A DNA stretch of 64,000 bases, from the NCBI RefSeq assembly GCF_030864005.1, contig NZ_CP132976.1, forward strand, positions 1,984,001 to 2,048,000. The letters are read 5' to 3'. Position 1 is the stretch's first letter. The number at the start of each line of letters is the position of its first letter. This document shows, piece by piece, positions 6,134-33,911 of this stretch. The notes beneath the pieces were generated by a model, which made no database searches, was not told where the DNA came from, and was given only the letters and a program-made list of their open reading frames with translations. The position numbers and the translations under genes are program-made. Source of the stretch: Achromobacter seleniivolatilans (GTDB lineage: Bacteria; Pseudomonadota; Gammaproteobacteria; Burkholderiales; Burkholderiaceae_B).

Positions 6134-9100
6134 TCCGCGCGTTACTGCATCGCCCCATTGCTTGCATCTTCCTGGCGCTGGCGCTGACCCTGCTGGGTGC
6201 GGTGGCGTGGCGGCTGCTGCCGGTTGCGCCGCTGCCGCAAGTGGACTTTCCCACCATCGAAGTCCGCGCCGACCTGCCGGGCGCCAGCCCTGAAAGCATG
6301 GCCAGCACGGTCGCCGCGCCGCTGGAGCGCGCCTTGGGCAGCATTGCGGGCGTCAGTTCGATGACATCGTCCAGCAATCAGGGCGCCACCCGGGTGCAAC
6401 TGCAATTCGATCTGGATCGCGACATCAATGAGGCCGCCCGCGACGTGCAGGCCGCCATCAACGCCGCCCGCGCCGAGCTGCCTTCGGGCATGCCGGGCAA
6501 CCCCAGCTATCGCAAGATCAACCCGTCGCAAGCGCCCATCATGGCGCTGGCGCTCAGTTCCGCGACACGGCCCGCCGGTGATCTCTATGACCTGGGATCG
6601 ACGGTGCTGGCGCAGAAAATCTCGCAAATCAATGGCGTGGGTGAAGTCACGATGGGCGGCAGTTCGCTGCCGGCCGTCCGCGTGCAAGTCAACCCCAACG
6701 CGCTGGCGCACTACGGCGTAGCTCTGGACGAAGTGCGCCTGGCAATTGCGAATGCGGCGCCCATGGGGCCACAAGGCCAGCTGGATTCCGCCGGCCAGCG
6801 CTGGGAAGTCGGAACGCCTGAGCAACCGCGCACCGCCAACGAATACAACAGTCTTATCGTGCGCCACAAGGACGGCGCTGTCATCCGGCTGGCGCAGGTT
6901 GCCAAGATCAGCGATTCGGTGGAAAACCGCTACAGCAGCGGGTTTCACAACCACAATCCGGCCGTGGTGCTGACCATCAGCCGCCAACCCGGCTCCAACA
7001 TTATTGAAACCATCCAGGCCATCAACCAGGCGTTACCCGGCCTGCGCGCGCTGATGCCCGCTGATGTAGACCTGACCGTGGCGCTGGACCGCTCGCCCGG
7101 GATCAACGCCACGCTGCGCGAAGCCCACATTACGCTGGCGCTGGCCACGGCGCTGGTGATCCTGGTGGTATGGCTATTTCTGGGCAACGCGCGCGCCGCA
7201 GCCATTCCCAGCGTGGCAATACCGGTGTGCCTGATCGCCACCTTTGCCGTCATGTATCTATGGGGCTTTTCGCTGAATAACCTGTCCCTGATGGCGCTGA
7301 TCGTGGCTGCCGGCCTGGTCGTGGACGATGCCATCGTGGTGCTGGAGAACATTTCGCGCCATATTGAACGCGGCCTGCCGCCCAAAAAAGCGGCGCTGCG
7401 CGGCGTGCGCGAAGTGGGTTTCACGCTGGTTGCCATGACCTTGGCGCTCAGTGTGGTCTTTGTGTCGATCCTGTTCATGGGCGGCCTGGTGGAACGGCTG
7501 TTCCGCGAATTCTCCATCACGCTCGTCGCGGCTACGGTGATCTCGCTGGTCGTGTCAGTTGCCATCATTCCGGCCTTGTGCGCCCGCTGGCTCAAGCCCG
7601 CTGTCTTGCACGCGGCGCCCCGCCCATCCCGCATGCAAGCCGTGTTCGCCCGCATCCATCATTGGTATGGCGTCTCGCTGTCGCGCGTGCTGGGGCATGC
7701 CCGCCTTACGCTGCTGTTATTGGCGGGCGTGGTCGGCTTGAACGTTTACCTGTATGTGCAGGCTCCGAAAGGGTTTTTGCCGGTGCAAGACACCGGCCAG
7801 CTGGTCGGCTTTGTGCGCGGCGACGACGGATTCTCGTTCCAGGTCATGCAGCCCAAGATCGATCAGTATCGTCAACTGGTGCTGAAACACCCTGCCGTGC
7901 AGGACGTCATCGGCTACAACGGCGGCGGCTTGGGCATCAGCAATTCTCTGTTCCTGATCCGCTTGAAGCCCGTGTCCGAGCGCCGCGAGTCCTCGACCGA
8001 AGTCATCAACTGGCTGCGCACGAATTCGCCGCCGGTGCCAGGCGGCATGTTCTTCCTGAATGTGGATCAGGATCTGCGCATGCCCGGCGGGTTCGGTAAT
8101 TCGGGCGATCACGAGCTTGCCATCATGGCCAGCGACGTCCCGGCACTGCGGCAGTGGTCGCGCAAGATCTCCAAAGCCATGCAAGAGATCCCTGAGCTGC
8201 GCGACGTAGACGCCGAAGGCGATGGTGCCACGCAGCAGGTCGTCATCAATATCGACCGCAGCGCCGCCCAACGCCTGGGGGTGGACATGAACACCATCAG
8301 CAGCGTGCTCAGTAATTCGTTCAGCCAGCGCCAGGTCGCCACGCTGTATGACGCCATGAACCAATACCGCGTGGTGCTGGAGCTGGACCCGCGCTACACC
8401 GAAGACCCGGAAGTGCTGGAACAAGTCCACGTCGTGGCCGCTGATGGCACGCGTGTTCCGTTGACCGCTTTCGCCACCTACGAGCACGGGCTGGTCAACG
8501 ACCGCGTCTTCCATGACGGCCTGTTTGCGGCGGTCGGCGTCGGTTTTTCCCTGGCTGAAGGCGTGTCGCTGGAACAAGGGCTGGCAGCCATCGACGCCAC
8601 CATGGCAAAACTGATGGTGCCGTCCTCGATTCAGACCCGGCTGGGCGGCGACGCCCGCAACTTCCAGCAGAGCCTGCAAGATCAGCCCTGGCTGATCCTG
8701 GCCGTCCTGATCGCGATTTATCTGGTGCTGGGTATCTTGTATGAAAGCCCGCTGCATCCGCTGACCATTTTGTCGACACTGCCCTCAGCCGGCGTCGGTG
8801 CATTACTGGCGTTGCGGCTTGCCAACATCGAGTTCACCCTGATTGCGCTGTTGGGATTATTTCTGCTGGTTGGCATCGTCATGAAGAACGCCATCTTGAT
8901 GATTGACTTTGCAATCAGTCTGGAACGGCGCGAAGGACTGTCACCGGAACAGGCTATACACCGCGCCGCCATGCTTCGGCTGCGGCCCATCGTCATGACC
9001 AATCTGGCGGGTTTGCTGGGCGCCCTGCCCTTGGTGTTGGGCATGGGAGAAGGATCGGAGTTGCGCCGGCCGCTGGGTATTGCCATTGTCGGCGGCTTGA

Positions 9101-9204
9101 TGATCAGCCAATTCTTGACGCTATACACGACTCCCATCGTGTATCTGGCATTGGAAAAACTACGCTTAAAGTGGCGTGCGGCGCGACGCCCGGCCAACGT
9201 CTGA
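6130..9204 (+). CDS. mdtC: RND multidrug efflux permease, MdtC/MuxC type
   Basis: 1024 residues, the second RND permease of the tandem pair. It starts within the mdtB stop codon. The paired Asp motif [16 protein letters not shown] and the late helix [16 protein letters not shown] carry the proton-relay residues. It begins directly with a membrane helix ([20 protein letters not shown]), as MdtC does. Tandem B/C permeases define the MdtABC/MuxABC class. No outer-membrane factor gene follows: the next gene is an unrelated sensor 264 bases on, so the complex presumably borrows a TolC/OprM-like channel encoded elsewhere. Confidence 0.95.
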
Positions 9205-9468
9205 GGCTTACACTCCATTCGGACTACGGCATGAGCACGGCGTAAAAACTGCCTGAAAACTGTCCGGCGCAAACCGGGCATGAATGCCTGCGCGTGTAAT
9301 CGTTTCAATCCTCAAGTGTCCATGGTAATGTCCCTGCGTATATTCTGATAACAACGCGATTAAAAGGAATATTCATACGCCGGCGTCGACAATACTAAGT
9401 CTTAGTTGTCCTCGGACGGCCGTTTATTCCTTTGCTTTTTATTCCATGATGTTTCATACGCTGTTTGC

Positions 9469-26012: not shown

Positions 26013-27485
26013 TTAACGGGCAGCCGCCAGATCAAACTGGAATACCGCGCCGGGTTCGGCGCGGTCGACCAGCCGGATTTCACTGTGATGCAGCTGCAGA
26101 ATGCGCTGCACAATCACCAGCCCCAAACCGCCGCTATCTCGCGGCCCGCTGTTCAGCGCAGACGCTCTGGTAAACAGCCCCGCGCGCAATTCATCAGGGA
26201 TGCCTGCGCCGGAATCACTAACCTGAACCTGCACCGAATTCTGCGCATATCCCAGCCGCAACTCGATGTGCCCGCCCGGCGGGCTGTGACGGATGGCGTT
26301 GTCCAGCAGGTTTGTCAGCACGCGTTCGATCAAGCCCACGTCGGCGCGCACGGGCGGCAGTTCGCGGGGAATGTCGGTTGTCAATTGCTGGCGCCGCGCT
26401 TCAGCGGCCAGTTCAAACTTCTGGATCACATCCTGCACCAGATCGGGCAAGGAAAAAGTCTCTGGCTCCAACCGCACCAGCCCAGATTCCAAGCGAGCGA
26501 GTTCAAACAATTCCTGCGCCAAACGGCCCACCTTGCGGCTTTGCGCCAGCGCAATGTCCAGATAGCGGCGGCGCTCGGCGGCGTCCAGCGTTTCGTCTTT
26601 CAAGCGTAGCGTTTCCAGGTAGCCATGCAACGAGGTCAGCGGCGTACGCAAATCGTGCGAGATATTGGCCACGAGATCACGCCGCTGCTGATCCTGCCGC
26701 GTCAGTTCGCGCCATTGCTCGGAAATACGCCGCCCCATCTGCACGAAGCTGCGGCGCAGCACGACGATCTCATCGGCGTTCTTGTCCGATGCATCGCCCG
26801 GCCGCTCCAGCGCAGCCAGCCCTTTGCCGTCATCACCTTCAAAATCGCGTACCGCACGCGTCAGATCACGAAGCGGCCGGGTAGTCAGGCCAAACGCCAC
26901 CAACCCTGCCACCAGCCCCAGCAACGCCACCAGCGCGATCGACCACAGGGTTGTGCGCAACACCGAACTGGCCGACACAGACATAGCCAGCGCGTCGTGG
27001 GCCTGCCCTTGCAGCACCACGTAAACGTAGCCTTGTTCTTGCCCCGCGACCTTGACCGGTGCAGCGCTGAAGACTTTTTTCACGCCCGCATTGCGCGGGT
27101 CGTCGCCAACAATGGGCAGCATTCCGCCCGCCAGCAGCCGTTGGACCGGCTCCAGATTCACGCGATCCAGTTTGATCTGGCCGGCAGGCGCCGCGTCGCC
27201 CACAATGCGGCCGTCGCTCGCCAGCAAATAAACCTCCACCGCCGGATTGACCGCCATCAGCATGTCAAACAGCGAGCGCACCGAGGCGGGCTTCCACCCA
27301 TTGGCGTCCATCAATTCATTGGTGCCCGCGATGTGCTGCGCCAGTCCGGTGGACAGCCGCTGCACGACCTCTTGCTCGTAGCGCGTGTTGGCTGCCACCT
27401 GCAACCAAGCGGACGCTCCGCAGCAAGCCAGCAACAGCAAGGCGAAGACGGCGGACAGACGCTGTGCCAATGTCAGGCGCTTCAT
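26013..27485 (-). CDS. Sensor histidine kinase
   Basis: 490 residues. An N-terminal membrane helix (about 7-28), a periplasmic sensor loop (about 30-175), a second helix (about 180-200), HAMP, then HisKA with phospho-acceptor His in LVANISHDLRTPLTSLHGY. The ATPase domain carries N-box LTNLLDNAIRHSPPGG, G1 DSGAGIPDELR and G2 DSGGLGLVIVQ. Its ATG overlaps the stop of the response regulator by four bases, so the two are coupled. The pair is divergent from the cytochrome b/YedY-like/Msr cluster, suggesting that it senses envelope oxidant stress; that link is inferred from position. Confidence 0.92.
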   Translation of the reverse strand: MKRLTLAQRLSAVFALLLLACCGASAWLQVAANTRYEQEVVQRLSTGLAQHIAGTNELMDANGWKPASVRSLFDMLMAVNPAVEVYLLASDGRIVGDAAPAGQIKLDRVNLEPVQRLLAGGMLPIVGDDPRNAGVKKVFSAAPVKVAGQEQGYVYVVLQGQAHDALAMSVSASSVLRTTLWSIALVALLGLVAGLVAFGLTTRPLRDLTRAVRDFEGDDGKGLAALERPGDASDKNADEIVVLRRSFVQMGRRISEQWRELTRQDQQRRDLVANISHDLRTPLTSLHGYLETLRLKDETLDAAERRRYLDIALAQSRKVGRLAQELFELARLESGLVRLEPETFSLPDLVQDVIQKFELAAEARRQQLTTDIPRELPPVRADVGLIERVLTNLLDNAIRHSPPGGHIELRLGYAQNSVQVQVSDSGAGIPDELRAGLFTRASALNSGPRDSGGLGLVIVQRILQLHHSEIRLVDRAEPGAVFQFDLAAAR

Positions 27486-28210
27486 GACGTGCCTCCTGCG
27501 GTTTCAGGCGCCGTCGCAAATTTATAGCCCCGGCCCCACACCGTCAGAATGCGCTGCGGGTTGGACGGATCGGTCTCGATCTTGGTGCGCAGCCGGTTGA
27601 TGTGCGTATTGACGGTGTGCTCGTAACCTTCGTGCTGATAACCCCAAACCTGATTCAGCAGATCCATGCGCGAGAAAACCTTGTCCGGGTGCCGCGCAAA
27701 GAAATGCAGCAGATCAAATTCACGCGGGGTCAGATCCAGCCGCCGGTCATCAACCTGCGCGGTTCGGGCCACGGGATCAATCGATACGCCGTGTAGCGTC
27801 AGGCTGCCGGCGTCGATGCGGGCATTGCGTTCCAACGCCTCGGTACGGCGCAGCAGCGCCCGAACCCGCGCCACCAGTTCCAGCATCGAAAAGGGTTTGG
27901 CCAGGTAGTCGTCTGCGCCCAATTCCAGCCCCAGGATGCGATGCACCTCGCTGGATCGGGCGCTGGTGATGATGATGGGCGTGTAACGCGTCATCGCGCG
28001 CGCCCGCTTGCAGATTTCCAGGCCATCGATACCGGGCAGCATCAGATCCAGAACCAGCGCATCCCAATTGCCCTCTTCCAGCCGCCGCATGCCGTCGTTC
28101 CCGTCGGCAGCGTGTTCCACCGCATAGCCTTCATCGCGCAAGTGCAAGCGCAGCAATTCGGCAATGTGGGCGTCGTCTTCAACAATCAGCACGCGTCGGG
28201 GCGTATCCAT
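27482..28210 (-). CDS. OmpR-family response regulator
   Basis: 242 residues from the ATG at 28210. Receiver domain: RVLIVEDDAHIAELL, phospho-acceptor Asp55 in LVLDLMLPG, and Lys in LAKPFSMLELVARVRALLRR. The C-terminal winged helix is of OmpR type (LTPREFDLLHFFARHPDKVF, then EHTVNTHINRLRTKIE). First gene of the two-gene operon with the kinase. The divergent gap (28211-28354) to the cytochrome b gene is the likely place for its operator. No strong ribosome site is visible at the chosen start. Confidence 0.92.
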   Translation of the reverse strand: MDTPRRVLIVEDDAHIAELLRLHLRDEGYAVEHAADGNDGMRRLEEGNWDALVLDLMLPGIDGLEICKRARAMTRYTPIIITSARSSEVHRILGLELGADDYLAKPFSMLELVARVRALLRRTEALERNARIDAGSLTLHGVSIDPVARTAQVDDRRLDLTPREFDLLHFFARHPDKVFSRMDLLNQVWGYQHEGYEHTVNTHINRLRTKIETDPSNPQRILTVWGRGYKFATAPETAGGTS

Positions 28211-28354
28211 AGGGGGCTCGGGCCAGGTCAATACCGCCATTGTCGCCAATCCGCTCCGGCGAGTTATCACATTTATTTTAAGTTTGCGTGAGGACTTGGA
28301 TATCGGCCCCGGGAAAGAATGGCTCCAACGACAAAAAGCCCCCGGAGACATCCC

Positions 28355-28987
28355 ATGCTGGCCCCTCCCGTAAGTCTCGACCCCACGGCCCCATTGCCGC
28401 CTTCCGGCAAGATCCACCCCGGCTGGCTGCGCATCATGCACTGGGTCAACGCTCTGGCCGTGCTGATCATGGTGACCAGCGGCTGGCGCGTCTACAACGC
28501 GTCGCCGATCTTTGACTTTGCCTTTCCCAACAACCTGACGCTGGGCGGCTGGCTGGGCGGCGCCTTGCAATGGCATTTTGCCGGCATGTGGCTGCTGTTT
28601 GCCAATGGCCTGTTGTATCTGGCGTTAAACATCGCCACCGGCCGCCTCTGGCGCAAATTCCTGCCCGTCAGCCCGCGCGGCGTGGCCTCTGACTTGGGCG
28701 CCGCACTGCGGGGCAAGCTGTCGCACGCTGATCTGCGCCACTACAACCAGGTTCAACGGGTGGCCTACCTGTTTGTCATGGCCGACATCGTCGTGCTGGT
28801 GCTGTCCGGGCTGGTGTTGTGGAAATCCGTGCAATTCGACCTGCTGCGCGAGCTGTTGGGCGGCTATGAATTCGCGCGCCGCATTCATTTCGTCGCCATG
28901 GCGCTGCTGGTGGCCTTTGTAGCCGTCCATCTGGTGATGGTGGCGCTGGTGCCCCGCAGCCTGATTGCAATGATCCGCGGCAAATAA
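28355..28987 (+). CDS. Cytochrome b561-type membrane subunit (YedZ1/MsrQ-like role)
   Basis: 210 residues from the ATG at 28355, chosen because GGAGA lies seven bases upstream. Four membrane helices carry heme-ligand His residues (HPGWLRIMHWVNAL in the first, LQWHFAGMWLLF, then RRIHFVAMALLVAFVAVHL in the last). This is the cytochrome b561/NiFe-hydrogenase b-subunit fold. It would pass quinol electrons to the periplasmic molybdoenzyme encoded 11 bases downstream. First gene of the presumed oxidant-defence operon, divergent from the two-component system. Confidence 0.85.
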   Translation: MLAPPVSLDPTAPLPPSGKIHPGWLRIMHWVNALAVLIMVTSGWRVYNASPIFDFAFPNNLTLGGWLGGALQWHFAGMWLLFANGLLYLALNIATGRLWRKFLPVSPRGVASDLGAALRGKLSHADLRHYNQVQRVAYLFVMADIVVLVLSGLVLWKSVQFDLLRELLGGYEFARRIHFVAMALLVAFVAVHLVMVALVPRSLIAMIRGK

Positions 28988-28998
28988 AGGAGCCCGAC

Positions 28999-29790
28999 GT
29001 GAGCCAGAAAAGATGCCTGTCGCTGCTCGGCCTGGATGGCCCGGCCATCTTGAAAGAAGCCAAAAACCTGCTGGTCCGCCGGGTGGAACAACCCTCGCGC
29101 CGGGCATTCCTGCGCAACAGCCTGACCTTGGGCGGGCTGGCCATGCTGTCGGGCTGCTCCTTGTCCGACGATGAAAACGTCGAAAAAGCGCTTGGCGCCG
29201 TATCGCGGTTCAACGACCGCGTGCAGGGCTGGCTGTTCGACCCCAACAAGCTTGCTCCGACCTACCCGGACGCCATGATCACCCGGCCGTTTCCGTTCAA
29301 CGCCTATTACGGCATTGACGAGGTACGCCATGTCGACGAGGAATCCTTCCGCCTGGAAGTGACCGGCCTGGTTGCCGACAAGCGTCAATGGCGGCTTGAA
29401 GAACTGCGCGCCATGGCGCAGATCGACCAGGTCACGCGCCATATCTGCGTCGAAGGCTGGAGCGCCATCGGCAAGTGGGGCGGCGTGCCCTTCTCCACAT
29501 TCCTGAAGCGCGTAGGTGCGGATCTGACCGCGAAATACGTCGGTTTCAAGTGCTCGGACGACTACTACACCAGCATCGACATGCCCACGGCGCTGCACCC
29601 GCAAACCATTCTGGCGCTGACCTACGACGGCCAACCGCTACCACCCGAATACGGCTTCCCCATGAAGCTGCGCATGCCTACCAAGCTTGGCTACAAAAAT
29701 CCCAAGCACATACGGGCAATTTTCGTCACCAACACCTACCCAGGCGGTTACTGGGAGGACCAGGGCTACAACTGGTTCGGCGGCAGCTAG
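28999..29790 (+). CDS. YedY-like periplasmic molybdopterin oxidoreductase
   Basis: 263 residues, GTG start with an AAAGGAG ribosome site. A twin-arginine export signal (SRRAFLRNSLTLGGLAML, about 33-50) is followed by a lipobox-like SGC. The sulfite-oxidase-fold domain has the molybdenum-ligand Cys150 in RHICVEGWSAIGKWGGVPF. C-terminal segments PMKLRMPTKLGYKNPKHI and GYWEDQGYNWFG are typical. The best functional analogue is YedY1 of the Azospira hypochlorite-scavenging system, or MsrP, which reduce periplasmic methionine sulfoxide. It pairs with the preceding cytochrome b and lies 41 bases before the methionine-rich protein gene. Confidence 0.88.
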   Translation: MSQKRCLSLLGLDGPAILKEAKNLLVRRVEQPSRRAFLRNSLTLGGLAMLSGCSLSDDENVEKALGAVSRFNDRVQGWLFDPNKLAPTYPDAMITRPFPFNAYYGIDEVRHVDEESFRLEVTGLVADKRQWRLEELRAMAQIDQVTRHICVEGWSAIGKWGGVPFSTFLKRVGADLTAKYVGFKCSDDYYTSIDMPTALHPQTILALTYDGQPLPPEYGFPMKLRMPTKLGYKNPKHIRAIFVTNTYPGGYWEDQGYNWFGGS

Positions 29791-29831
29791 GTGAAATCCT
29801 GTCTTACCCCTATCCATCAAAGGAACGCATC

Positions 29832-30158
29832 ATGAAGAAACTCACCACCGCCGCTTTTTCCCTGTGCCTGGCCTTTGGCGCCGTGACGGCTCATGCCGCC
29901 GACACCATGGGCAAGGACAGCATGAGCAAAGACAACATGGCAAAAGACAGCATGTCCAAGGATGGCATGTCCAAAAGCGGCATGACCAAAGATGGCATGG
30001 CCAAGGATGGAATGTCCAAAGACAGCATGTCCAAAGACGGAATGTCGAAAAACAGCATGTCCAAGGACGGGATGTCGAAAGATGGAATGTCCAAGGATGG
30101 CATGTCAAAAAACAGCATGTCGAAGGACGGAATGTCCAAGGACGACATGAAGAAGTAA
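29832..30158 (+). CDS. Exported methionine-rich pentapeptide (MxKDx) repeat protein, MrpX-like
   Basis: 108 residues: a Sec signal peptide ending AHA (residues 1-22), a three-residue linker, then sixteen consecutive five-residue units of the form M-x-K-D/N/S-x and a final MKK. The mature chain has 17 methionines in 86 residues, is almost free of hydrophobic core residues and contains no Cys, Trp or Tyr, so it is probably unfolded. The family is known as penta_MxKDx. Setting it between a YedY-like reductase and exported MsrB/MsrA suggests a sacrificial methionine pool that reacts with hypochlorite or other oxidants and is then reduced again. Confidence 0.9.
   Translation: MKKLTTAAFSLCLAFGAVTAHAADTMGKDSMSKDNMAKDSMSKDGMSKSGMTKDGMAKDGMSKDSMSKDGMSKNSMSKDGMSKDGMSKDGMSKNSMSKDGMSKDDMKK
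29907..30146 (+). repeat. Sixteen tandem 15-bp units encoding MxKDx
   Basis: Sixteen in-frame 15-base units, each starting ATG, vary mainly at codons 2 and 5 (for example ATGTCCAAGGATGGC and ATGTCGAAAAACAGC). Synonymous drift between units shows that the array is under protein-level selection rather than freshly slipped. Confidence 0.9.
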
Positions 30159-30233
30159 TTCCAGCGCAACCGGCTGCCTGCGGGTCTCGTTCAACGAACC
30201 CGCAATCCCTGCCCCTTTAGATAGAGCCACGCC

Positions 30234-30728
30234 ATGACATTGAATCGCAGACATTTCCTGAGCCTGGGCGGGGCCGCGGCCCTCACGGCCGGCCTGGCCC
30301 CGTTGTTAGCCGCGCGCGCCGCCACCCCCGCCGCCACCTTCCCCTACGTGTTGACCGACGCGCAATGGCGCGAACGGCTCACACCCGTGCAATACGACGT
30401 ATTGCGTCACGAAGGCACCGAACGGCCCTACTCCAGCCCGCTCAATGACGAACACCGCAAAGGCACGTTCTCGTGCGCAGGCTGCCAGCAAAAAGTCTTT
30501 TCTTCGGAAACCAAGTTCGACAGCGGCACCGGCTGGCCCAGCTTTTGGCAACCATTGCCCAAGGCTGTAGGCGAAACACGCGACAGCAGCTTCGGCATGG
30601 TCCGCACAGCCGTCTACTGCGCAAACTGCGGCGGCCACCTAGGCCACGTCTTTGACGACGGCCCACGGCCCACCGGCCTGCGCTACTGCATGAATGGCGT
30701 AGCCATGACCTTCGCCCCGCAAGCTTGA
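30234..30728 (+). CDS. msrB: Exported methionine-R-sulfoxide reductase
   Basis: 164 residues. A Tat-like signal (NRRHFLSLGGAAALTAG) precedes a complete MsrB domain: zinc Cys81/84 (CAGC) and Cys129/132 (CANC), substrate region DSGTGWPSFWQP, and catalytic Cys152 in LRYCMNG. MsrB normally has RYCIN; Met replaces Ile here. It reduces the R-epimer of methionine sulfoxide, here in the periplasm. It lies 75 bases after the methionine-rich repeat gene and 31 bases before msrA. Confidence 0.93.
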   Translation: MTLNRRHFLSLGGAAALTAGLAPLLAARAATPAATFPYVLTDAQWRERLTPVQYDVLRHEGTERPYSSPLNDEHRKGTFSCAGCQQKVFSSETKFDSGTGWPSFWQPLPKAVGETRDSSFGMVRTAVYCANCGGHLGHVFDDGPRPTGLRYCMNGVAMTFAPQA

Positions 30729-30759
30729 CCCACATACGCGACACACAGGACTTCACGCC

Positions 30760-31464
30760 ATGACCCCCACCCACAAGCCCCGCCCCCTGCTCGCGCTACT
30801 GGCCGCCGCCTGCGGTCTGCTGGGCGCGGGCGCCGCGCAAGCCGCCGAAACCGCCTTCATCATTCCACCGCCCGCGATGGATCAGACCACCACCGCCGCC
30901 GCCACAGAAAAAGCCGTGATCGCCGGTGGCTGCTTCTGGGGCGTGCAAGCGGTCTTCCAGCACGTCAAGGGCGTCACCAGCGCCGTGTCTGGATATGCCG
31001 GCGGCAAAGCAGACACCGCCAACTACGACACCGTCAGCGGCGGCCGCAGCGGCCACGCCGAAGCCGTCGAAATCAGCTATGACCCCAAGCAGGTCAGCTA
31101 CGGCCAACTGCTACAGATCTACTTTTCGGTAGCGCATGACCCGACCCAACTGAATCGTCAGGGGCCGGACAGCGGCACGCAATACCGGTCGACGGTATTT
31201 CCAGAAAGCGACAGCCAGCGCAAAGTGGCCGAGGCTTACATCGCCCAACTGAACAAGGCCGGCGTGTACTCGAAGGCGCTGGCAACCACCGTCGAACCGC
31301 TGCAAGGCTTCTACCCGGCCGAGAGCTACCACCAGGATTATCTCGTCCGCCATCCGTACAGCATGTACATCATGGTGAACGACATCCCCAAGGTTGAAAA
31401 CCTGGCCAAGACCTTCCCTGACAGATATCGGGACAAGCCGGTGCTGGTTGGAGACAAGGGGTAG
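30760..31464 (+). CDS. msrA: Exported methionine-S-sulfoxide reductase
   Basis: 234 residues. A Sec signal (LLALLAAACGLLGAGAAQA) is followed by a spacer rich in Thr/Ala and the MsrA domain. Catalytic Cys58 lies in AGGCFWGVQ; the substrate and fold motifs SGYAGGKADTANYDTVSGG-like and HAEAVEISYDP follow. The conserved FYPAESYHQDYL is near the C-terminus. It reduces the S-epimer of methionine sulfoxide, complementing MsrB so both epimers formed by chemical oxidation can be repaired outside the cytoplasm. Last gene of the cluster. Confidence 0.93.
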   Translation: MTPTHKPRPLLALLAAACGLLGAGAAQAAETAFIIPPPAMDQTTTAAATEKAVIAGGCFWGVQAVFQHVKGVTSAVSGYAGGKADTANYDTVSGGRSGHAEAVEISYDPKQVSYGQLLQIYFSVAHDPTQLNRQGPDSGTQYRSTVFPESDSQRKVAEAYIAQLNKAGVYSKALATTVEPLQGFYPAESYHQDYLVRHPYSMYIMVNDIPKVENLAKTFPDRYRDKPVLVGDKG

Positions 31465-31702
31465 AAGGGTCGAGCGGAATCGCGCCTCGCCAAGCACCCA
31501 GCGGGCGCGCTTGTGCGGAGTCGCGTCCGCTCGCAACCAGGACCGATGGCTTGCGATAGACTCCCGGGCTTGTTCCTGAACACGACCTTCATCCATGCCC
31601 CGAACGGTTTTCGAGATTCCCGTCATCAGAACGTGCGCAGAAGGTGCCCTCAGGATCAACCTCTGAACCAGTCAGTTCGGCTTCTACACAGGAATTTATT
31701 CA

Positions 31703-32334: not shown

Positions 32335-32862
32335 GTGGATTGCACCGTGCCCGTCCCAAACCCCTCGCTTTGCGTCGAAACCCTATATAACGACCATCAC
32401 GGCTGGTTGCGCGGTTGGCTGCGCAGGCGGTTAGGCGACGCCCACCAGGCAGCCGACCTGGCGCACGACACCTTCGTGCGGCTACTGTCTCGGGACGAGC
32501 ACGTAGCCATTCAAGAGCCTCGCGCCTATCTGACCACCATCGCCCAGCGTGTCGTGGCCAACCACTGGCGCAGGGAAAAGCTGGAGCAAGCATATCTGGA
32601 AGCGATTGCCCAGGACCCGCAAGCCCTCGCGCTGTCTCCCGAAGACCGCGCCATCCTGCTGGAAACGCTGGTGGAGATCGCCGGCCTGCTCGACGGCCTG
32701 CCTGTGCTGGTCAAGCGCGCCTTCCTGCTGACCCAGCTTGACGGCCTGAACCACGCTCAGGTTGCCGAAGAACTGGGCATTTCCGTCACCACCGTCAAGC
32801 GTCATATCGCCCGCGCCGCACGGCAGTGCTACTTCCCGGACGCTTTGCCGGTTAAGGCATGA
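32335..32862 (+). CDS. FecI-type ECF sigma factor
   Basis: 175 residues, GTG start (a second GTG at 32347 is possible). Region 2 is visible in LADLAHDTFVRLLSRD-like residues (actually QAADLAHDTFVRLL) and region 4 in LNHAQVAEELGISVTTVKRH, giving a two-domain ECF sigma of the iron-starvation group. It directs transcription of its receptor gene when the anti-sigma regulator signals ligand occupancy. The stop overlaps the fecR-type gene by four bases (ATGA). Confidence 0.92.
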   Translation: MDCTVPVPNPSLCVETLYNDHHGWLRGWLRRRLGDAHQAADLAHDTFVRLLSRDEHVAIQEPRAYLTTIAQRVVANHWRREKLEQAYLEAIAQDPQALALSPEDRAILLETLVEIAGLLDGLPVLVKRAFLLTQLDGLNHAQVAEELGISVTTVKRHIARAARQCYFPDALPVKA

Positions 32863-33911
32863 GCGCTGCCTCCCATCCAGGCCGGCGTTCCGGTCCAGCA
32901 TCGCAAACCACCGCGCCCGTCCCCGCGAACGTCGCCGACCAGGCCGTGCAATGGCTGATCGAACTGCAAGCTGGCGAACCGTCTCCCCGCATGCGGGAGC
33001 AATGGCTACGCTGGCGCAGCTTGCACCCAGACAACGAACGCGCGTGGCAACGCATCGAGTCCGTCAACGGCAGCATGCGCGGTCTGCCATCGCCGCTTAA
33101 GTCTGCCCTGGCGCAAGCTACGCTCACACCCAAGCACTCTGCGCAACGCCGACATGCCGTGAAGACGCTTGCAGCGCTAGTGTTCGTGAGCGCGGGCGCT
33201 TGGACCGCGCAAGAACTGGTGCCGTGGCGTCAATGGACCGCGCAACATCGCACCCGCATCGGCGAGCGCAACACGCTGCTGCTGGATGACGGCAGCCAGC
33301 TCGTCATGAACACCGACAGCGCTATCGACGTGGCTTTCACAGCTTCAGAACGCCGGATTCGGCTGGTGGCTGGAGAAATCCTGATCACCACCGCTCGGGG
33401 TCCGCAGGCTACGGCACGCCCTTTTCTGATTGAAACCGCGCAGGGCGAGGCCCGAGCGCTCGGCACGCGCTACGCCGTACGGCAACTGGCCGACGCCACA
33501 CTGGTCAGCGTTTATGAAGCGGCCGTGGACATTCATCCTCGGCGCGCCGGGGAACGCCATCTTGTCTTGCTGGCCGGTCAGCAATCGCAATTTACCGCCA
33601 CGGAGATCACCTCCCCCTGGAACACGGAAGAAAGCAATCCGGCATGGGCGAGCGGCATGATCATCGCCCGGGGCCTGCGGCTTGCGGATTTTCTGGCCGA
33701 GCTCGGGCGTTACAGCCGTCTACCCATCAGTTGCGACCCAGGGGCCGCCGATCTGCGCGTTTCAGGGTCCTATCCGCTTGCCGATATCGGCAAGGTGCTG
33801 GACACCCTCGCCACCCTATTCTCGCTGGAGGTCCAGCACGTCACGCGGTTCTGGGGCGAGAAATCGCTGCGCCTGACGCGGACTCAGTCAGGAACGAACA
33901 GAGTCAGCTGA
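32859..33911 (+). CDS. FecR-type anti-sigma/sigma regulator
   Basis: 350 residues. The N-terminal cytoplasmic region (about 20-80, ADQAVQWLIELQAGEPSPRMREQ-like with W residues) binds the sigma factor. One membrane helix (TLAALVFVSAGAWTAQ, about 105-120) and a periplasmic FecR domain follow (RLVAGEILITTARG, GTRYAVRQL). The C-terminal part resembles the STN-contact domain (SRLPISCDPGAADLRVSG). It relays receptor occupancy across the inner membrane. It is translationally coupled to the sigma gene and followed by the receptor. Confidence 0.92.
   Translation: MSAASHPGRRSGPASQTTAPVPANVADQAVQWLIELQAGEPSPRMREQWLRWRSLHPDNERAWQRIESVNGSMRGLPSPLKSALAQATLTPKHSAQRRHAVKTLAALVFVSAGAWTAQELVPWRQWTAQHRTRIGERNTLLLDDGSQLVMNTDSAIDVAFTASERRIRLVAGEILITTARGPQATARPFLIETAQGEARALGTRYAVRQLADATLVSVYEAAVDIHPRRAGERHLVLLAGQQSQFTATEITSPWNTEESNPAWASGMIIARGLRLADFLAELGRYSRLPISCDPGAADLRVSGSYPLADIGKVLDTLATLFSLEVQHVTRFWGEKSLRLTRTQSGTNRVS

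What the first reader, a model, noticed from the sequence alone, without database searches (positions are those of the whole stretch)
26013..31464. Complete periplasmic methionine-based oxidant-defence module with its own two-component system
Five genes in line encode a cytochrome b, a YedY-like Tat-exported molybdoenzyme, an unfolded exported protein with 17 methionines, exported MsrB and exported MsrA. A kinase/regulator pair is divergent. Established knowledge: in Azospira, MrpX (a methionine-rich peptide) with YedY1/YedZ1 scavenges hypochlorite, and in E. coli a two-component system controls MsrPQ. Here both reductase routes (molybdoenzyme and thiol-based Msr A/B) are combined with the methionine sink. 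The combination suggests redundant recycling of both sulfoxide epimers.
Basis: partly seen in the sequence, partly recalled or inferred. Interest (0 to 1): 0.75.

Follow-up and report, generated by a model that had tools for sequence, protein, structure and literature searches.

The report
One switch for two methionine-repair routes
A bacterium carries, beside what looks like its own oxidant-sensing switch, a set of exported proteins that seem to soak up oxidants on methionines and to restore them by two different chemical routes; related bacteria keep the two routes in separate places but mark both with the same DNA site.

Summary
In detail: an Achromobacter-like genome has a kinase/regulator pair divergent from cytochrome b, an exported molybdoenzyme, a 17-methionine MxKDx peptide, exported MsrB and exported MsrA. 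Most of it is known in kind. Pair, cytochrome and molybdoenzyme correspond to E. coli OrhK/OrhR-C3566-C3567-C3568 (PLoS Pathog 2021), with an operator of the same TCAC-N17-GTGA geometry; the peptide is of the MrpX/BcrX family.

New here: the operator marks a small dual-route regulon. In Pseudomonas the cytochrome-molybdoenzyme-peptide core and the pair-msrB-(dipZ)-msrA cluster are unlinked, yet both carry it (two sites in 21 of 21 genomes of the main search, 5 of 7 of an earlier, stricter one; 26 of 26 pair loci read). Unlinked sites in two other genomes led to the same two gene sets. Achromobacter and Bordetella mostly fuse the halves. SigF replaces the pair in 12 of 81 core loci, never with the operator. 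Linked MsrA and MsrB lack the resolving cysteine of the genome's other copies, so they should need an outside reductant. There are exceptions (four pair-bearing cases without a recognisable site).

Function is inferred, not tested. New variant of a known kind.

The parts
26013..27485 (-). Sensor histidine kinase (OrhK-type; phospho-acceptor His277)
   Evidence: HisKA/HATPase_c; 46% identical over query residues 1-484 to the kinase of an E. coli plasmid copy, histidine there at 278
27482..28210 (-). OmpR-family response regulator (OrhR-type; Asp55), overlapping the kinase gene
   Evidence: Response_reg + Trans_reg_C; 63% identical to the E. coli plasmid copy
28262..28297 (+). Conserved operator; inverted half-sites TCAC-N17-GTGA at 28267-28291, next to a -35-like GGACTT (28292-28297), 17 nt before a -10-like AAGAAT (28315-28320)
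   Evidence: the only site in the 6.86-Mb genome at up to 3 mismatches
28355..28987 (+). Membrane cytochrome b (PF01292), presumed quinol-fed electron donor (C3566-like); the upstream ATG at 28319 overlaps the -10-like box, so 28355 is the likelier start
   Evidence: present in 81 of 81 core loci
28999..29790 (+). Tat-exported, probably lipid-anchored molybdoenzyme of the sulfite-oxidase fold (YedY1/C3567-like); Cys150 is the likely Mo ligand
   Evidence: lipobox in 79 of 81 loci by pattern, the other 2 by eye
29832..30158 (+). Exported pentapeptide MxKDx repeat protein (MrpX/BcrX/C3568-like), 17 Met at a strict period of 5
   Evidence: TIGR02953
30234..30728 (+). Tat-exported MsrB, 1-Cys type (four Zn Cys plus RYCMN only)
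30760..31464 (+). Exported MsrA, 1-Cys type (GGCFWG only after the signal)

Best explanation
The window holds the fused form of an OrhK/OrhR-type regulon for repair of oxidised methionine in the cell envelope. A membrane kinase senses periplasmic oxidant; the phosphorylated OmpR-type regulator binds a ~36-bp operator with TCAC-N17-GTGA half-sites that abuts the -35 region and activates the + operon (and perhaps its own genes). The exported MxKDx peptide is oxidised on its methionines in place of other targets. Methionine sulfoxide in it and in other envelope proteins is restored by two routes with separate electron sources: quinol via cytochrome b to the molybdoenzyme, and thiol electrons to 1-Cys MsrB (R epimer) and MsrA (S epimer), supplied by a DipZ-like CcdA-thioredoxin carrier where present and, in the window's genome, perhaps by its single DsbD. 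Shown here by sequence: gene content, operator conservation, co-distribution with the kinase, split and fused layouts, missing resolving cysteines. Inferred: signal, activation, peptide as sink, electron flow. Shown by others for the E. coli relative: regulator binding to the promoter fragment and activation of the core operon under tert-butyl hydroperoxide.
For: A copy of the operator is found by best match in the regulator-cytochrome gap of all 29 loci compared, with diverging flanks (28 of 29 keep TCAC), and before the core in 27 Pseudomonas loci without an adjacent pair. In 7 Pseudomonas genomes the kinase orthologue (58-61%) lies away from the core; 6 of these loci were fetched and 6 of 6 have the operator between regulator and msrB, msrA downstream. 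In 21 further Pseudomonas genomes there are exactly two sites each; 20 of the 21 second sites were fetched and 20 of 20 lie between regulator and msrB. In 300 genomes of the window's order the kinase (E<=1e-120) is in 10 and the operator in 7, all 7 among the 10; unlinked sites lead to the core in G145 and to msrB-dipZ-msrA in G297, 771 kb from its pair. A Cupriavidus megaplasmid has pair, weaker site (28 of 36) and msrB-dipZ-msrA. The E. coli relative has the operator (29 of 36) with the geometry published for OrhR, and OrhR binds and activates (PMC8550376; abstract, passages, sections 6 and 10). SigF and operator never co-occur (0 of 81; 12 SigF, 57 operator). MsrB is 1-Cys in 15 of 15 and 33 of 33, MsrA in 26 of 27 and 33 of 33, against paralogues with further Cys in the same genome.
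Against: Pair without recognisable site: of the 10 kinase genomes, G110 (pair alone in the 14 kb read, no core), G170 (pair beside msrB-dipZ-msrA) and G070 (kinase 3 kb from an unmarked core, no regulator match seen); a Burkholderia plasmid with the pair alone scores 23 of 36 at best. With the stricter pattern only 5 of 7 split Pseudomonas genomes gave two sites: G002 gave one and G007 none, their TCS-side copies being weaker ones found on reading; G007's core (L016) has no operator and no peptide. Core copies in G297 and G267 carry no site at up to 3 mismatches. Nine of 26 pair-type core loci have no msrA or msrB nearby, and each of their genomes has one site, so the thiol half is optional. 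The E. coli work used tert-butyl hydroperoxide, not hypochlorite, and in the parts I read tested mutants of kinase, regulator, c3566 and c3567, not of the peptide gene. The molybdoenzyme's substrate is untested and its model is of middling confidence (pLDDT 65). The operator was defined from core loci, so its link with an adjacent pair is partly by construction; the unlinked sites are the independent test. The 20 second sites were fetched around the site, so they test site-to-gene only.
Confidence: 0.78

Rival explanations
1. The unit serves copper or silver handling: a CusRS/CopRS-like TCS senses metal, the Met-rich peptide binds Cu(I), and the Msr enzymes repair metal-caused damage.
For: Kinase and regulator match heavy-metal subfamilies (cztS_silS_copS 141.8 bits, cztR_silR_copR 174.3 bits). 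A paper on E. coli MsrPQ under copper stress exists (PMC9302797; title and start of abstract only).
Against: Both scores are far below the curated cut-offs (292.55 and 279.2). One site in the window's genome and two in Pseudomonas, at the core or at msrB in the loci read. A strict MxKDx spacing is not the usual Met cluster of copper proteins (recalled). The E. coli relative responds to an organic peroxide. Metal genes around the loci were not searched for.
Confidence: 0.12
2. msrB and msrA are chance neighbours read through from the core promoter, not part of one functional unit.
For: Presence by the core needs at least 10 changes on the core tree, and 13 of 26 pair-type loci lack one or both.
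Against: In Pseudomonas, where they are unlinked from the core, msrB-msrA carry the core's operator (26 of 26 pair loci read); in G297 they carry it away from both core and pair. MsrA also lies by SigF-type cores (5 of 8).
Confidence: 0.06
3. The molybdoenzyme acts mainly on another S- or N-oxide (or on sulfite), and only the peptide and the Msr enzymes deal with methionine.
For: Only distant similarity to MsrP (27% in the fold match; 78.6 bits against a cut-off of 207 for NF003767); sulfite dehydrogenases score as well by fold.
Against: YedY is the best sequence match among solved structures (1xdq, 3.9e-12, against 2.2e-6 for a sulfite dehydrogenase); 78 of 81 core loci keep the Met-rich peptide beside it; related units in Azospira and Brucella are linked to hypochlorite resistance.
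Confidence: 0.15

Closest known systems
OrhK/OrhR-C3566-C3567-C3568 of uropathogenic E. coli (PMC8550376)
   Same: TCS with cytochrome b, molybdoenzyme and Met-rich peptide; in an E. coli plasmid copy kinase 46%, regulator 63%, cytochrome 59%, molybdoenzyme 60% identical to the window; operator TCAC-N17-GTGA (published as TCACA-N15-TGTGA) just before the -35
   Different: No MsrA/MsrB in the published unit as far as I read it; in that strain it is co-transcribed with a toxin operon, which the window lacks
SigF/NrsF-MrpX-YedY1 of Azospira suillum; BcrS/AbcS-BcrXQP of Brucella
   Same: Met-rich MxKDx peptide with a YedY-type molybdoenzyme and membrane partner, for hypochlorite defence (PMC8315932 passages; PMC5748585 passages; the Azospira paper itself is not held)
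   Different: Controlled by an ECF sigma/anti-sigma pair; GTAACC...CGAA promoters in 10 of the 12 SigF-type loci here; the window has a TCS and another operator
MsrPQ with YedVW of E. coli
   Same: Periplasmic molybdo-Msr with a membrane electron donor, TCS-controlled (as stated in passages of PMC8550376)
   Different: Donor of the PF01794 type; the window's genome has such an MsrPQ elsewhere (L085); the window's donor is PF01292
Exported thiol Msr systems such as Neisseria PilB and streptococcal MsrAB with CcdA/thioredoxin (recalled; listings only)
   Same: Exported MsrA and MsrB activity with a membrane thiol supply
   Different: Here separate enzymes, MsrB exported by Tat, both without resolving Cys, and tied to a molybdoenzyme route by one operator

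Membership tests
OrhK/OrhR-C3566-C3568 type unit | Kinase/regulator next to cytochrome b-molybdoenzyme-Met-rich peptide | tested here: met
OrhK/OrhR-C3566-C3568 type unit | Operator TCAC-N17-GTGA (TCACA-N15-TGTGA) just before the -35 | tested here: met
   window 28267-28291; 89 of 91 distinct sites have TCAC-N17-GTGA; published geometry. The outer TCAC/GTGA is shared; the inner A/T of TCACA/TGTGA is not kept on the right side in the window
OrhK/OrhR-C3566-C3568 type unit | Regulator binds and activates under peroxide stress | not testable with these tools
   shown for E. coli only
SigF/NrsF-MrpX (Azospira/Brucella) system | ECF SigF and NrsF next to the core, GTAACC...CGAA promoter | tested here: not met
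   absent at the window; SigF-type gene in 12 and the promoter in 10 of 81 loci
MxKDx repeat protein (MrpX/BcrX family, TIGR02953) | Score over the curated cut-off; exported; regular Met every 5 residues | tested here: met
   104.9 against 41 bits; export by reading the signal
MsrP (NF003767) | Score over the curated equivalog cut-off | tested here: not met
   78.6 against 207 bits; so YedY-like, not filed as MsrP
MsrP (NF003767) | Sulfite-oxidase fold with Mo-ligand Cys in a CVEGW/CVEAW motif | tested here: met
   (Cys150, Glu152, Trp154 invariant in 19 of 19 rows); model of middling confidence
MsrQ | PF01794 ferric-reductase-like membrane protein | tested here: not met
   PF01292 instead
MsrA and MsrB | Family model over cut-off and catalytic Cys (GGCFWG; RYCMN) | tested here: met
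MsrA and MsrB | Resolving Cys of the common two-Cys types | tested here: not met
   the genome's other copies have further Cys at such places

The most novel reading that the evidence does not exclude
A single dedicated operator joins two electron supplies (quinol pool and cytosolic thiols) to one regenerable Met-rich peptide, making a closed oxidant-quenching cycle that can run under changing respiratory or redox conditions; the 1-Cys MsrA/MsrB are specialised to take electrons straight from a DipZ/DsbD thioredoxin domain, and lineages fuse, split or drop either half while keeping the switch site.
Probability: 0.4. Interest if true: 0.7.

Novelty: new variant of a known kind. Interest (0 to 1): 0.55.

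Why it matters
It gives a sequence-level definition of an OrhR-type regulon well outside E. coli, predicts that molybdo- and thiol-based methionine repair are switched on together, and offers a natural experiment: the same two halves fused in Achromobacter, split in Pseudomonas, and the core run by a sigma factor in other bacteria. It also raises a testable question: how exported 1-Cys MsrA and MsrB are reduced.

Tried and rejected
Methionines in the kinase sensor as the oxidant sensor: Met65 is kept in 27 of 28 and Met83 in 28 of 28 kinases next to the core, window included, but the E. coli relative has Leu at 65 and Met83 sits in a motif that may be structural, so I make no claim. A Cys pair in TM1 (25 and 21 of 28) was only noted.

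HprR membership: the regulator scores 150.6 against a cut-off of 353; rejected.

DipZ as part of the window's unit: no full-length match in the window's genome or three relatives, only 32-33% identity to the thioredoxin part; rejected for the window. One DsbD_TM protein (667-aa open frame) exists elsewhere.

A general promoter scan found no sigma-70 consensus site in 27900-31700; the -35/-10 proposed rest on conservation over 91 aligned sites.

Adjacent ECF sigma genes in the 'neither' group: a crude motif search in 7 loci found none.

Kinase family search: 5,017 of 8,000 scored candidates at E<=1e-60, best 120 listed, no functional name among those; not used further.

Literature: no paper on an MsrB-DipZ-MsrA regulon of this kind was seen in the listings of searches; the library lacks many journals and the Azospira paper, so absence is weak. 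A review (PMC12846084, passages) repeats the E. coli work.

The core tree is a short search with 9 of 78 inner branches starred; change counts from it are rough. The chance figures (3.0e-12 by genome and 1.7e-7 by genus for operator within kinase genomes, 3.8e-8 for SigF/operator exclusion) ignore relatedness.
Full report
What is there. The window is from a 6.86-Mb genome close to named Achromobacter species (molybdoenzyme 93-94% identical in L003, L004 and L014). The kinase gene overlaps the regulator gene; both run against a five-gene line with gaps of 11, 41, 75 and 31 nt. The peptide is 108 aa, 86 aa after the predicted cut, with 17 methionines at an exact period of five and 104.9 bits to TIGR02953, cut-off 41. 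The molybdoenzyme has a twin-arginine motif followed by a lipobox; a pattern finds this in 79 of 81 loci, and the two misses show RR and SGC/GGC by eye. MsrB starts with a twin-arginine signal.

The core elsewhere. With the window that makes 81 loci. Cytochrome b is beside the molybdoenzyme in 81 of 81. A Met-rich peptide follows in 78: 77 by pattern and L021 by eye; L068 ends too soon to tell, and L016 and L075 show none. By regulator the 81 fall into 30 with adjacent pair and operator, 27 with operator but no adjacent pair (all Pseudomonas by title), 12 with a SigF-type gene (10 of them with a GTAACC...CGAA promoter), and 12 with neither. Pfam confirms SigF (sigma-70 regions) and NrsF (232 bits) in L051, the one checked. 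No locus of the 81 has both SigF and operator.

The operator. Aligning the regulator-cytochrome gap of 29 loci showed one conserved block in otherwise divergent sequence. In the window it is 28262-28297. Over 91 distinct sites (scored at 28 of 36 or better) the half-sites TCAC-N17-GTGA hold in 89, and conservation runs on through a -35-like hexamer to a -10-like one. The window's genome has one site at up to 3 mismatches. The consensus came from core loci, so the link with an adjacent pair is partly built in; the tests below use sites away from the core or away from the pair.

Tests in chosen genomes. In 13 genomes the kinase is in 10 and the operator (up to 3 mismatches) in 9 of those 10, in none of the 3 without kinase; the reversed pattern found none. 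Seven of the 10 are Pseudomonas with the kinase away from the core: five gave two sites, G002 one, G007 none. Six of these seven pair loci were fetched (not G006): 6 of 6 have a copy between regulator and msrB, with msrA downstream, those of G002 and G007 being weaker. In 47 further genomes, with a looser pattern at up to 2 mismatches, 22 with an adjacent pair have one site each, except that of Bordetella genomosp. 2 with two from a tandem copy; 21 Pseudomonas have exactly two each; 4 of the 'neither' kind have none; the reversed pattern finds none in 47. Twenty of the 21 second sites were fetched (not that of G336) and 20 of 20 lie between regulator and msrB. Of the 26 Pseudomonas pair loci read in all, 15 show a DipZ-like gene between msrB and msrA and 11 do not.

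Tests in the order. In 300 genomes the kinase (E<=1e-120) is in 10 and the operator in 7, all within the 10; the reversed pattern hit once in 300. In G145 one site precedes the core and another, beside the pair, precedes msrB-dipZ-msrA; in G297 the site precedes msrB-dipZ-msrA 771 kb from the pair; in G267 it stands between pair and msrB-dipZ-msrA; in G219 it precedes msrA; G150 and G249 (same genus as the window) have the full fused unit. A Cupriavidus megaplasmid has pair, a weaker site (28 of 36) and msrB-dipZ-msrA. Against: G110 (pair alone in 14 kb, no core), G170 (pair beside msrB-dipZ-msrA, no recognisable site), G070 (kinase near an unmarked core) and a Burkholderia plasmid (pair alone, best 23 of 36); core copies in G297 and G267 are unmarked.

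The known relative. PMC8550376 (abstract, passages, sections 6 and 10) reports that C3564/C3565 (OrhK/OrhR) of uropathogenic E. coli activates c3566 (cytochrome b), c3567 (molybdoenzyme) and c3568 (Met-rich peptide, likened there to MrpX), that the regulator binds the promoter fragment, that a repeat TCACA-N15-TGTGA lies just before the -35, and that the operon responds to tert-butyl hydroperoxide. A DNA search with regulator to molybdoenzyme matched 357 of 5,426 E. coli genomes; only 8 rows were seen, each covering 47% of the query over regulator, cytochrome and molybdoenzyme. A plasmid copy has kinase 46%, regulator 63%, cytochrome 59% and molybdoenzyme 60% identical to the window, the histidine at 278 as in the paper, and the operator at 29 of 36 positions with TCAC-N17-GTGA. 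So a TCS-driven core is already known. What I did not see in print is the thiol half in the same regulon, or the split and fused layouts.

The thiol half. Core-linked MsrB has four Zn cysteines and the catalytic one in 15 of 15, and MsrB of the fetched pair and site loci in 33 of 33 (three have one more before the mature part). MsrA has only the GGCFWG cysteine after the signal in 26 of 27 (L022 has another in a strand region) and 33 of 33 (26 have one more near the signal). The genome's other MsrB has FDAGCGWPS, and its other MsrA has GGCFWC and GYC. One-Cys enzymes should leave a sulfenic acid for an outside thiol (recalled). The Pseudomonas carrier has DsbD_TM-like, thioredoxin-like and Thioredoxin_10 parts. 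The window's genome lacks it but has one DsbD_TM protein.

How fixed is the layout. Both msr genes lie within 8 kb of the core in 13 of 26 pair-type loci with at least 4 kb downstream, 0 of 26 Pseudomonas cores, 0 of 8 SigF-type (five have msrA alone) and 2 of 10 of the rest. Among Achromobacter loci with that much sequence, 8 of 9 have both (window included; L013 has neither), and so do 2 of 2 Bordetella. On a quick tree of the 81 molybdoenzymes the regulator class needs at least 9 changes and msr adjacency at least 10 (few branches well supported).

The enzyme. Solved YedY (1xdq) is the best sequence match (3.9e-12), sulfite dehydrogenases follow. A model of middling confidence (mean pLDDT 65, pTM 0.62) matches YedY and sulfite dehydrogenases about equally. 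It falls well below the MsrP cut-off. I call it YedY-like, working like MsrP by analogy with the Azospira, Brucella and E. coli relatives, not an MsrP member. The genome has a canonical-looking MsrP-MsrQ pair elsewhere.

Verdict. A real, well-conserved unit; a fused variant of the OrhK/OrhR type extended by an exported thiol route. The regulon claim is strong at sequence level; signal, sink role and electron flow remain inference.

Noticed in passing
L008 around 9100-9450 (Achromobacter pulmonis LMG 26696): Kinase, regulator and operator are missing together: the nitronate monooxygenase gene is followed by what looks, by eye, like the kinase's 3' end and then the cytochrome gene's early part, while molybdoenzyme, peptide, msrB and msrA remain.
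   Followed up: partly
L018, L041, L043, L046, L058, L063, L073 upstream of the core: A third promoter-like signature, TGTAAKA followed about 16 nt on by GAC[CTA]A, in 7 of the 12 loci with neither SigF nor operator; no adjacent sigma gene found by a crude motif.
   Followed up: partly
L012 (Bordetella genomosp. 2): The unit from operator to msrA is present twice in tandem, operators 4,837 bases apart.
   Followed up: no
L156 (Rahnella sikkimica plasmid) and plasmid records: Kinase relatives (E<=1e-60) on 91 plasmid records, 63 predicted conjugative, mostly Escherichia; the Rahnella one has pair, operator (30 of 36), cytochrome, molybdoenzyme and an annotated MXKDX repeat protein.
   Followed up: partly
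L038, L065, L069, L077, L078, L021 downstream of the core: In some Polaromonas and Variovorax (and L021) a DipZ-like gene follows the core; the one checked (L038) lacks the C-terminal Thioredoxin_10 part.
   Followed up: partly
L016 (Pseudomonas sp. H1h): A core without operator and without a Met-rich peptide by pattern, although the genome keeps a pair-msrB-dipZ-msrA locus with a site.
   Followed up: no
window 32335-33911: An ECF sigma/FecR-like pair lies shortly after the module; by reading the translations it does not look like SigF/NrsF (no domain scan made).
   Followed up: no
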